DNA from: Sporodiniella umbellata
Taxonomy: Eukaryota > Mucoromycota > Mucoromycetes > Mucorales > Rhizopodaceae
Assembly (NCBI GenBank): GCA_025677835.1
Contig: JAIXMR010000026.1
Span: forward strand, 112,001 to 176,000
DNA length: 64,000 nucleotides
Direction: 5' to 3'
The first letter of the stretch is position 1; the number at the start of each line of letters is the position of its first letter. Positions 15,069 to 23,462 of this stretch are shown piece by piece. The position numbers and the translations under genes are program-made. The notes under the pieces are model-generated. The model saw only the letters and a program-made list of their open reading frames with translations, searched no databases and was not told the origin of the DNA.

Positions 15069-16834
15069 CGGTTTCTTTATTCTCGCCACTTTGTTTACAA
15101 TTGTCGGGTGAGAAAAAGGAGGAGGAAAAGGCCAAAAAAAAAAAAAAAAAAAAAAAAAAGGAAAAGGAAAAGAAGGAAAAAAATAGATGTTAAAAGAAGA
15201 CCAGAGCAAGGAAAAAATATTTTTCATGATTAAGATACCGTCATGCACTCAGTCCAGGGCCAAAACATTTTACATTTCAGACGTTTTGAGACTGAACTTT
15301 TTTTGGTTCTCCATTTGTGGGTTTTAACCTGATTTGAAAACAGTCAATAGGGCCCCCCCTCTCTTTGTTTTACCACTCTTTTGACCAAGGCTTTGCTACC
15401 TCTTTATATTTGCTAAAAGCGACCGGCAGTCGCCTCACCCCTCTCTTTCTTTTTCTTTCTTTTTCTTTCTTTCTTTTTCATAAACCCATTGAATTGTTTG
15501 TCACACTTGTTTAAAATAACTTGCTCATGATATAAGGCTGTTGTCATCACCGAACACTAAATATAAGGAGAGACCGCCATTGTTAATTCCACAAGCCAGT
15601 AAAATAACAAAGAAATACAAACAAAAGAAAAAAAAAAGAGAGCTGTTACTGCCTTTTTCCTCCATCCATATAGCAATCTTGATTTTGTTCGAGGCCTTCA
15701 ATGTCCTACCTAAAAAAAAGAATCTCCTTACACCTTCAAGACTCCGTTTACAAACACGGTGATTCATGGTTTCTCAACAACAATGAAAGGGTGGCATTGA
15801 TTCAGCTTATACAAGACGCGTTCAAAGCGAAGCATACTATCCAAAGACTTTTTTTTTGAAATTCTGCTTATTTTATGTAGAGAACGCGTTCTACAATACA
15901 TCAAGATGCCATCCTGTGCAAGAAAAAGGGGAAGCTTAGAGATGCTTTGTCATCATTGTGTTGAATCGACTTGATGTCTTTCCATTCGTTTGGGTACACA
16001 AACAGGGGTAGCTTATCGTTTTCGTTCCTTTTGATTGGAACTGAAAGAAATGCACAGAGCATCATGAGAAGCGCCTTGTCCTATTCGTTTTCAAACCGGA
16101 CAAGCGTAAAACAAAGATCCCACAGAGGGTTTCCAAGCAGACCTGTTGGATGGATGAAACCCTACTACAGCTAGGTAGTACAGGCGCTCACTCTCAATCT
16201 GAGACTCAAGATTGGTCTAAATATATTTCAGGCACACACACAATACACTATGTTTCTGCCTTTGTTTTTCTGAGAATGACGGAATACTAAACCAAACGAT
16301 AGATGCAAGAGCCAATCAAGAGTGCTAAAACAAGAAGAAGGACAAGCGACTTGTCTTTGCTAAAAACAAAGCAAGCGACATTGTAGAGTAATCAAAGAAC
16401 ACCTAACGCGCTTTTAAAAAGAAAAAACCTTCCGCGGTACACAAGAGCGGCAGACGAATACAGCCTTTCCTTTATTGTTATGAGAGTATACCCTATCCAT
16501 GATTTAGCATGATTTCCGCAAAAAAAAAAAAAAAAGGTGTCTTTACTACCAAACTTTGTATGTTTGGGTTAATACAGATCTTGTCAATAAAAAGAAAAGG
16601 AGGGTTCTTTTGTATACAGTTGTTCAACCGATACTTGTTTTTATTTTTTTTCAGAGAGAATCACTCTCTCATGTTTGACGACCCAAAAACACAGGCGATT
16701 GAAGATAGGGATAGAAAATGAGGCTTACAGGAAAACAAGGCGTGTCGGTTAAATATGTATCCCCTTACACTGTGTGGATGTATAAATAGTTCAAGGTTTT
16801 TATTTATTATTATTATTTATTTTTTTTTTTTTTT

Positions 16835-16870
<36 letters not shown>

Positions 16871-16897: not shown

Positions 16898-17796
16898 ATG
16901 GCCCAAAACAACAATGGTATAACAGGCTCTTTTGGCCAAAGAAGAAACAGGGACTCGAATGAGACCATGGATCGATTCAAAGCTTACACAAAAGACGTAG
17001 GTGGTCTGGATAGTATCGATTTCAAAAATACAGACTTTCTTCGGTTTAGTAAAGCATGGTTTGCTATGAAACGAAGCGAGTATTTCCAAAGGGTTGAAAA
17101 GGTAAGTGGTGGATAGTATAGGCTAAGAGATGTTGATGTATGTGCGACTAGCTGCGTTATTCTGTCTGTATTGAATGCGGTAAGCTGTTAGAGTCAAAGG
17201 CAAGCCTGAATGCTGAAGTGGAAAGGGTGATAGTACGACGAAAGCGAGGTCCTCTGTGTGTTTTGTGTGCTGGGTATATCTAACTATCGATCTTGCTATT
17301 AAAAGAAAACGATGACTAATCTATGCCCTCTAAGCCTTTACGAAAAATTCGAGAGTCTTGACGAGGAAATCATGATGGAGGAGTATTTGTTACACGGACT
17401 TTTGCCGCATGCAGCGATTGGGCAAGTGGCTCTGACGGAAGCGTGTATCGATGTCCGAATGGAACGCTTACGAGACCATCTGTTGAGAAGAACCCTGAAG
17501 AAAAGCGCTTCTGCAGACGTTGCGACGACGGATCAACTACTCCATCTGATTGTACAGTCAGGTATGCGATGTGCTATCTCTGGCTGGCCTGTCTATTCGG
17601 GAGGTTACAAATGGTGGTCTATGTCAATTGATCATGTGTTCCCGATAAGCAGAGCCACAATAGGTGTACACCATGTTTCGACGATTGACAATCTTCAAGT
17701 CACTGCCAAAATACTCAACGCAGTCAAGCTCTCTTATTCTCAAGACGCTGTTGTTTCCTGGTTCAATCGATGGCGGGCGTATAAGCTAAGGGATCG

Positions 17797-17800
<4 letters not shown>
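16898..17800 (+). CDS. HNH endonuclease-like protein A (tandem copy 1)
   Basis: Exons 16898-17101, 17152-17273 and 17335-17800, 263 aa. The N-terminal region has an F-L-R-F-S-K-A-W-F-A-M-K-R segment. Next comes a probable zinc ribbon with C-x2-C at residues 74-77 and 104-107. The C-terminal half holds R-C-A-I-S-G-W-P, then D208-H209 in I-D-H-V-F-P-I-S, N228 in N-L-Q, and an L-N-x-x-K end: the spacing and residues of an HNH (beta-beta-alpha metal) nuclease site. Such folds cut DNA or RNA using one divalent metal. Activity here is inferred. All three exons align with the downstream gene, with matching intron positions around the zinc ribbon. I know of no characterised orthologue. Confidence 0.7.

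Positions 17801-17826
<26 letters not shown>
17798..17826. repeat. (TAA)n microsatellite at the stop codon of HNH-like gene A
   Basis: The stop TAA at 17798-17800 is the first unit of an uninterrupted TAA run. It is complementary to the TTA run before the gene. Confidence 0.95.
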
Positions 17827-17832
<6 letters not shown>

Positions 17833-18071
17833 TAACCATCCTCATCATAACAAAAGCCCTGTTGACGTCTTGCCTTCTTTTTTAACCCAGTTTCTGACGA
17901 TGGTTCGGGTTTATGCAAGAGAAAGGGCATGTGATTTGATACGCGTTTGTCTTATTATGGCAACTCACTCCTTATCGGGTGGCTTTTTGTTTTTGTTGAC
18001 TCCTTTAACTTAAAATTATAAATTAAAAAGGCTATTGCATCCTGTTCTCTTTCTTTTCCTTTTGTTGAAGA

Positions 18072-18972
18072 ATGGATGAAGAGCTCTTCAAATCACTGAG
18101 GGAATCTTGCCATGCCGAATTGCAATTAACTCACCCAAGACTATCCAAAAAACTCGCGGCGCATAGCTATCACTTGGATATCTACAATGTAGACAAACTG
18201 GATTACACACAGAAAAGCTTTCGGCGGTTTAGTGCCTATTGGTATGCAATGAAACGACAGGAGTATTTTAATCATCAAAAGATGGTATGGTATTATTCCG
18301 CCTCTACTTTTTCATACAAACTAACCTAACCATCCTTTTTGTTTTTTTTTTTTTAGATTCGTAATACTTCATGTACTGAATGTGGCCAACACCTTCAGCA
18401 TAATCTGCCTGGAAGAAGAAACATCCGCAGGCTTCCCCGTCGTGATTCAGGACTGTACTGTCAGTTATGTCATCGGTAAAGGTAAAATAAAAGACAATAT
18501 GACGCTCTACTAAAGCGCTCTATGTCAAAGGCTTTACACGAATTTCAAAAGTCTGGATGAAGAGTTGACTGTGGTGGAGTATTTAACCCACGGACATATA
18601 CCATGTCATCAGGTTTGGAAAGTACTAAGTTCTAACCCCAGTATTCCTTTCCCAAAGAAACCAAGTAACTGTGCACGGGCTACAAAGGAAGATTTGATCC
18701 AATTGGCTTTGGACTCGGACATGCGGTGTGCTATTTCTGGATGGCCCATTTTATTTGGGCACGGTAGTTGGTGGTCAATGTCCCTTGATCACGTCTATCC
18801 TATATCCAAAGCAAAGAAACTCACATCGTATGGCACGAGTATCAAAAACCTTCAACTCACTTCCTACATCTTGAACCAAGTCAAGGATGACGATTCTCAG
18901 GACGCCATCGTCTCTTGGTTCTGTCGATGGCGAGACCACCAGAAAAGAAAGCGTTCGTTTTTTGGTCATTAA
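18072..18972 (+). CDS. HNH endonuclease-like protein B (tandem copy 2)
   Basis: Exons 18072-18284, 18357-18475 and 18531-18972, 257 aa. It is the clear paralogue of the gene 270 bp upstream: same exon phases, F-R-R-F-S-A-Y-W-Y-A-M-K-R near residue 55, zinc-ribbon C-x2-C pairs at residues 77-80 and 106-109, R-C-A-I-S-G-W-P, D197-H198 in L-D-H-V-Y-P-I-S, N217 in N-L-Q, and L-N-Q-V-K. The C-terminus is strongly basic (K-R-K-R), which could aid nucleic-acid binding or nuclear import. All candidate catalytic residues are retained in both copies, so neither looks like a decayed pseudogene. Biological role unknown. Confidence 0.7.
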
Positions 18973-20017: not shown

Positions 20018-20666
20018 ATGGTAAGTGAAAGAAAGGATGGATGGCATCCAATGTCGATAAGAAACTCACACTCTTACTTCTTTCCACCTTCTCACTTGAT
20101 AAACATCAGTCTCTTGTCGTTCCCGAAAGAAACAACGTATGTAACTTTAGAAATACCTTGCTTTTTTTTTTGTTAGGCCCATTTTCTTGTGATTACTAAT
20201 TCTGCTTCTACTTTTTTTTTTATTTTCACAGTTCCAACACATCATTCGTCTTCTTAACACCAACATTGACGGTCGTGTCAAGGTTCAAATTGCCTTGACC
20301 TCTGTTAAGGGTGTCGGTCGCCGTTTCGCTAACATTGCCTGTAAGAAGGCTGATGTCGATCTCACCAAGAGAGCCGGTGAGCTTTCCAGCGAAGAATTGG
20401 AACGTATTGTCACCATTCTCCAAAACCCTGCTCAATACAAGATCCCCAACTGGTTCCTTAACAGACAAAAGGACATTGTAGATGGCAAGTCCTCTCAAGT
20501 TATCTCTAACGTGCTTGATACCAAGTTCCGTGAAGATCTCGAACGCTTGAAGAAGATCCGTGCTCACCGTGGTCTCCGTCACTACTGGGGTATTCGTGTC
20601 CGTGGTCAACACACCAAGACTACCGGTCGTCGTGGACGTACCGTCGGTGTCTCCAAGAAGAAATAG
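20018..20666 (+). CDS. RPS18: 40S ribosomal protein S18 (uS13)
   Basis: Exons 20018-20020, 20110-20136 and 20232-20666, 154 aa. The start codon alone forms exon 1 (ATG followed by GTAAGT). Exon 2 supplies S-L-V-V-P-E-R-N-N. Exon 3 carries the conserved uS13 body ([24 protein letters not shown]) and the near-invariant end [12 protein letters not shown] and V-S-K-K-K. The protein sits in the 40S head near the P site and intersubunit bridge. Codon use is strongly biased toward C-ending codons compared with neighbours, as expected for high expression. Confidence 0.98.

Positions 20667-21892: not shown

Positions 21893-23462
<1,570 letters not shown>

What the first reader, a model, noticed from the sequence alone, without database searches (positions are those of the whole stretch)
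16898..18972. Tandem pair of uncharacterised HNH-nuclease-like genes with an added zinc ribbon
Two adjacent three-exon genes share intron phases, a C-x2-C/C-x2-C ribbon and a C-terminal D-H ... N-L-Q ... L-N-x-x-K site typical of HNH nucleases. Putative catalytic His and Asn are kept in both while the flanks diverge, which argues for selection on nuclease chemistry. I know of no described eukaryotic family with this architecture. It could be a domesticated nuclease, a homing-type remnant or a genome-defence enzyme. Seen: motifs and duplication. Inferred: activity.
Basis: partly seen in the sequence, partly recalled or inferred. Interest (0 to 1): 0.75.

Follow-up and report, generated by a model that had tools for sequence, protein, structure and literature searches.

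The report
Fungal HNH-nuclease gene pair
Two neighbouring genes in a bread-mould-like fungus encode proteins related to a DNA-cutting enzyme type that is common in phages and bacteria; the protein layout is known there, and the unusual part is finding a small, intron-bearing family of them settled in a fungal nuclear genome.

Summary
The window is from Sporodiniella umbellata (Mucorales): gene 2 equals its deposited hypothetical protein BY458DRAFT_508386. Both genes have three exons with introns of phase 0 and 2, a CxxC/CxxC pair and the D-H, N and N-x-x-K residues. The HNH part scores 25-27 bits against a phage/bacterial HNH profile; 0 of 200 shuffles of each protein reach that. The assembly holds two more members found: C116, with a textbook HNH motif, and C9, which lost the catalytic His and second Asn. 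Shared introns suggest long nuclear residence. The layout is not new outside eukaryotes: 29 of 81 viral and 5 of 28 bacterial relatives also have an upstream CxxC/CxxC pair. Ribbon homology is not shown for the window pair: 81 and 50 of 200 Cys-preserving shuffles score as high. Most likely these are domesticated HNH endonucleases, with an intact site in the window pair. Three protein searches named no other fungal relative, but 10 of 11 weak matches name no organism and sensitivity is limited. Activity and role are untested. Moderately interesting, of a known kind.

The parts
16898..17800 (+). Gene 1 (263 aa), three exons: 16898-17101, 17152-17273, 17335-17800
   Evidence: not returned by protein searches
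17102..17151 (+). Gene 1 intron 1, phase 0, GTAAGT...AG
   Evidence: same position and phase in gene 2 and in my C9 model
17274..17334 (+). Gene 1 intron 2, phase 2, GTATAT...AG, just after the second Cys pair
   Evidence: same position and phase in all four members
17152..17273 (+). Gene 1 exon 2, CIEC...CVLC cysteine pairs (putative zinc ribbon)
17335..17797 (+). Gene 1 exon 3, HNH domain (D208 H209, N228, N237, K240)
18072..18972 (+). Gene 2 (257 aa) = hypothetical protein BY458DRAFT_508386; exons 18072-18284, 18357-18475, 18531-18972
18285..18356 (+). Gene 2 intron 1, phase 0
18476..18530 (+). Gene 2 intron 2, phase 2
18357..18475 (+). Gene 2 exon 2, CTEC...CQLC cysteine pairs (putative zinc ribbon)
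18531..18969 (+). Gene 2 exon 3, HNH domain (D197 H198, N217, N226, K229)

Best explanation
The pair are members of a small nuclear gene family descended from a prokaryotic or phage-type HNH endonuclease and long resident in the fungal genome. Each protein has an N-terminal part that is helical in the model, two CxxC pairs that probably bind zinc and touch DNA, and a C-terminal His-Me-finger (HNH) domain. Proposed mechanism (recalled from the superfamily): the Asp of D-H and the Asn of N-x-x-K hold one divalent metal, the His of D-H activates water, and the enzyme nicks or cuts DNA. Shown here: HNH homology, the kept residues in the pair, the cysteine pairs, the duplication, the shared introns. 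Inferred: zinc and DNA binding, catalysis, place of action. Host role unknown; DNA processing and defence against foreign DNA are both open.
For: HNH-only profile from 12 hand-picked phage/bacterial proteins: gene 1 26.9 bits, gene 2 25.2, C116 57.2, C9 10.6; 0 of 200 shuffles of each reached the real score. Independent profiles (three of the four proteins scanned, C9 not): phrog_1035 to C116 E 7.3e-15, to gene 1 E 1.6e-4; phrog_338 to gene 2 E 1.5e-4. Profile-profile match to the 12: four fungal proteins 98.1% probability, window pair alone 95.2%, C116 alone 98.5%, C9 alone 21.6%. D, H, both N and K invariant in 9 aligned proteins. Identity by codon position shows purifying selection. Intron 2 is shared by all four, intron 1 by three. 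The locus DNA is not repeated in the genome apart from simple-repeat and one 53-base match; ORFs around the other two copies look like ordinary cellular genes by eye.
Confidence: 0.6

Rival explanations
1. The HNH fold is kept as a DNA- or RNA-binding scaffold and the proteins are no longer nucleases.
For: The C9 copy lost the D-H His and the second Asn yet my splice model keeps an open 350-aa frame. The pair scores far below C116 against HNH profiles.
Against: All five site residues are identical in both window genes although they are only about 44% identical overall.
Confidence: 0.2
2. A homing-type selfish nuclease gene or its remnant that spread by cutting and gene conversion.
For: Closest profiles are phage HNH families. 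Passages of PMC10448857 say that the homing endonuclease genes shown for phage ICP1 generally have a DNA-binding domain at one end and the nuclease at the other, and that homing often cannot be inferred from sequence alone.
Against: The genes contain their own introns at shared positions, the members are diverged to 21-44% identity, the locus DNA is not repeated in the genome, and neighbours of the other copies look ordinary by eye.
Confidence: 0.1
3. A component of DNA defence or DNA repair of the fungus, with the C116 member acting in mitochondria and the window pair elsewhere.
For: The first 30 residues of C116 have 6 Arg/Lys and no Asp/Glu; gene 1 has 5 and 3, gene 2 5 and 5, C9 2 and 8. 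HNH nucleases are common effectors in bacterial defence (recalled).
Against: The hydrophobic moment does not single C116 out: 0.43 against 0.47 for gene 1, 0.39 for gene 2 and 0.34 for C9. No localisation, expression or phenotype data.
Confidence: 0.1

Closest known systems
phrog_1035 (annotated 'endonuclease VII') and phrog_338 (HNH endonuclease) of phages
   Same: HNH site in a C-terminal domain; phrog_1035 aligns from the Cys pairs to the HNH in C116 (73-266) and gene 1 (70-234)
   Different: Families of viruses of prokaryotes; the match of gene 1 and gene 2 is weak (best E about 1.5e-4)
Phage and bacterial proteins with CxxC/CxxC plus HNH, for example the 223-aa ORF in MT835470 (L010:817-1488)
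   Same: CxxC/CxxC pairs first, then linker, then CAISG...SID-x-I-x-P...N-x-Q...N-x-x-K
   Different: L010 has D-Q instead of D-H and two Cys-pair units; the ribbon is not demonstrably homologous to those of the window pair
Gme HNH nicking endonuclease (PDB 4h9d)
   Different: Binds Zn through Cys38, Cys41, Cys73, Cys76 (start of the abstract of PMC3765158), within the nuclease domain; the window genes have no CxxC in exon 3
Cas9 HNH domains
   Different: The window proteins have only 257-263 residues; Cas9's RuvC and guide-RNA parts are recalled and were not searched for
T4 endonuclease VII
   Same: Name given to phrog_1035; His-Me finger nuclease (recalled)
   Different: Recalled: its zinc cysteines flank the active site; in the window genes the last ribbon Cys lies 88 (gene 2) or 101 (gene 1) residues before the D of D-H

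Membership tests
HNH / His-Me finger nuclease superfamily | D-H, following Asn, and N/H-x-x-K residues at the expected spacing | tested here: met
   Present in both window genes; invariant in 9 aligned proteins. In the fuller set of 14, H and both N stay invariant, D and K do not; C9 was in none of these and lacks H and the second N
HNH / His-Me finger nuclease superfamily | Profile similarity above chance | tested here: met
   0 of 200 shuffles reach the gene 1 or gene 2 score with the HNH-only profile; PHROG E about 1.5e-4
HNH / His-Me finger nuclease superfamily | beta-beta-alpha metal fold | tested here: inconclusive
Pfam PF01844 HNH | Score over the curated cut-off | tested here: not met
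   Gene 1, gene 2 and C9: no HNH family reported; only C116 passes, 24.4 against 21.4 bits
Phage ribbon-HNH proteins | CxxC/CxxC pairs N-terminal of the HNH | tested here: met
   All four fungal proteins
Phage ribbon-HNH proteins | Ribbon homologous in sequence, not only in Cys spacing | tested here: inconclusive
   Cys-preserving shuffles at or above the real score: gene 1 81/200, gene 2 50/200, C9 7/200, C116 2/200
Endonuclease VII / Gme HNH type | Zinc-binding Cys pairs inside the HNH domain | tested here: not met
   The only CxxC motifs of gene 1 and gene 2 are those in exon 2
Homing endonuclease gene | Spread into cognate empty sites | not testable with these tools
   The tool states that the genome has no relatives here; indirect signs are against
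Nuclease | Metal-dependent DNA cleavage | not testable with these tools
   Needs protein

The most novel reading that the evidence does not exclude
A lineage-restricted eukaryotic family of domesticated ribbon-HNH nucleases that has split its work: one mitochondrial member, a tandem pair with intact sites acting elsewhere, and one catalytically dead member that regulates or guides the others, serving as a DNA defence or DNA-processing system of Mucorales.
Probability: 0.1. Interest if true: 0.6.

Novelty: new member of a known kind. Interest (0 to 1): 0.35.

Why it matters
If the pair are active, they would be intron-bearing, duplicated HNH nucleases fixed in a fungal nucleus, a type that I recall mostly from phages, bacteria and organelles. 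The four-member set, with one textbook member and one that lost its site, makes a compact test of what such an enzyme does after it settles in a eukaryote.

Tried and rejected
Pfam on exon 3 alone and on full proteins, and NCBIfam on full proteins: no HNH family for gene 1 or gene 2; weak zinc-domain and cytochrome hits of gene 2, below cut-off, were judged chance from Cys spacing. Viral scans with P0002 alone (6 stretches) and with the four fungal proteins (56 stretches) found no relative passing tblastn. Phage tblastn with P0002: 111 records, none covering 80% of it; the 30 listed align within residues 164-261. With P0001: 2 records, E 2e-3 and 0.4. Own-genome search with phrog_1035 gave C116 (E 2.1e-11) and a chance-level place in C145 (E 3.15); with phrog_338 C116 and gene 1. 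PDB by sequence: the mixed alignment A4 finds HNH structures, but its bacterial rows may drive that; the fungal-only alignment gives 6 matches, none HNH. dN/dS: dS saturated, YN00 failed. My expectation that the ribbon itself would prove homologous to phage ribbons was not borne out for the window pair.

Limits of the ribbon count: 81 viral loci were examined (L010 plus the 80), one had no located ORF, 29 had the pattern; the shuffled mean is 3.3, maximum 7. So 29 of 81 is not a population frequency. For the profiles I picked by eye 8 of the 29 ribbon-bearing loci and 4 of the 11 proteins P0003-P0013. For some searches I left out 5 of those 11 proteins (P0004, P0006, P0008, P0011, P0012) that stood.

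Papers: ten searches. Six, joining HNH with Mucorales, Mucoromycota, early-diverging fungi, Rhizopus, fungal zinc ribbon or fungal gene families, returned none; one listed 14 papers, mostly on CRISPR by title; the others listed 5, 1 and 2. I saw passages of PMC10448857, the start of the abstract of PMC3765158, and listings with abstract starts for the rest. No positive control was run to show that other Mucorales are in the protein database, so absence of fungal relatives is weak evidence.

Full report
What the locus is. The window lies in contig C118 of a 25.9 Mb, 198-contig assembly. Gene 2 equals hypothetical protein BY458DRAFT_508386 of Sporodiniella umbellata, a species of Rhizopodaceae, Mucorales. 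Both genes read on the + strand, 271 bases apart. Gene 1: exons 16898-17101, 17152-17273, 17335-17797 plus stop. Gene 2: exons 18072-18284, 18357-18475, 18531-18969 plus stop. Intron 1 is phase 0 and intron 2 phase 2 in both. The deposited gene 2 model supports the splice pattern; gene 1 has no counterpart among the hits.

Family in the genome. Searching the assembly with gene 2's exon 3 gives four places: gene 2 itself, gene 1 (E 1.1e-31), C9 (9.0e-7) and C116 (4.8e-4). The search with the C116 protein finds C116, gene 1 and gene 2 but not C9. The C116 gene is BY458DRAFT_489240, 270 aa. The models show the phase-2 intron directly after the second Cys pair in all four, and the phase-0 intron in gene 1, gene 2 and C9 but not C116. 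The four ribbon cysteines are invariant in the four. C116 carries DHIVPLSKGG...NLR...LNHVK and passes the PF01844 cut-off (24.4 against 21.4 bits); gene 1, gene 2 and C9 match no HNH family of Pfam. C9 has D-L for D-H and lacks the second Asn.

Is it HNH? With a profile of the HNH part of 12 phage and bacterial proteins, the scores were 26.9 (gene 1), 25.2 (gene 2), 57.2 (C116) and 10.6 (C9) bits; none of 200 Cys-preserving shuffles of each protein reached its real score. With the full-length profile: 24.6, 23.9, 66.0 and 11.3, against a best of 5.3 among 800 plain shuffles. These 12 proteins were picked by eye from hits of P0001, P0002 or the P0002-led alignment, so the independent PHROG result counts more: phrog_1035 E 7.3e-15 for C116 and 1.6e-4 for gene 1, phrog_338 1.5e-4 for gene 2; C9 was not scanned. 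In nine aligned proteins C177, D197, H198, P201, S203, N217, N226 and K229 (gene 2 numbering) are invariant; in the fuller set of 14 only the His, one Pro and the two Asn are.

Is the ribbon novel? Not as an architecture; as a homology it is open. Of 81 viral loci examined, 80 had a located ORF and 29 have CxxC/CxxC upstream of the HNH, against a mean of 3.3 in shuffled upstream parts (maximum 7); of 28 prokaryotic genome loci 5 do, against 0.27 (maximum 2) (loci). A phage ORF that gene 2 finds at E 2e-3 has the same order of parts. But a profile of the ribbon alone does not beat Cys-preserving shuffles for the window pair: 81 of 200 (gene 1) and 50 of 200 (gene 2) score at least as high; C9 7, C116 2. 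So the ribbon may have been inherited with the HNH and diverged, or been acquired separately.

Selection and mobility. Codon-position identities between the window genes are 0.55, 0.66 and 0.41 over 227 codons; the third position is the least conserved, as in coding sequence under constraint. Exon identities are 29, 33 and 48%. dS is saturated, so the ratio that NG86 would imply should not be quoted as a measurement. The pair's DNA is not repeated in the assembly: apart from itself only two matches between its own simple repeats and one 53-base match in C195. ORFs around C116 and C9 look like ordinary cellular genes by eye; they were not run through a family library. These points, with the shared introns, argue for long residence, not for a mobile or freshly homed gene.

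Distribution. Three protein searches over 5.8 billion sequences returned the two deposited Sporodiniella proteins and 11 weak matches (E 5e-4 to 8.6), one named as a Parcubacteria protein and the other 10 without an organism name. The search needs shared five-residue words and did not retrieve C116 with gene 2 as single query, so distant relatives can be missed; I ran no control for other Mucorales.

Reading. Most likely: domesticated HNH endonucleases with an intact site in both window genes. The role is not known. The strongest counter-signals are the absence of matches of the pair to curated HNH families, the low-confidence models and the paralogue that lost its site. Scored 0.35: solid and slightly unusual for a fungus, but of a known kind.

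Noticed in passing
window 16828-16866 and 17797-17835: Gene 1 is bracketed by two (TTA)n/(TAA)n tracts in opposite orientation, 39 bases at 95% identity; the stop codon of gene 1 lies at the start of the second tract. Probably simple repeats, not terminal inverted repeats of an element.
   Followed up: partly
L001 (G000:C116:34358-37429), minus strand: Paralogue BY458DRAFT_489240 has a basic, acid-free first 30 residues (6 R/K, 0 D/E), like a mitochondrial presequence, though its hydrophobic moment is not above that of gene 1; it has the best HNH motif of the family.
   Followed up: partly
L004 (G000:C9:87077-90541): Paralogue with D-L in place of D-H and a lost second Asn, but an open 350-aa frame in my splice model; a candidate catalytically dead copy.
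   Followed up: partly
L010:817-1488 (MT835470.1, phage of a human faecal sample): ORF in an unannotated phage record with two Cys-pair units and an HNH-like domain in which D-H reads D-Q.
   Followed up: no
window 20193-20666 and 21893-22906: Neighbouring reading frames look like ribosomal protein S18 and S-adenosylhomocysteine hydrolase (by eye): ordinary housekeeping surroundings.
   Followed up: no
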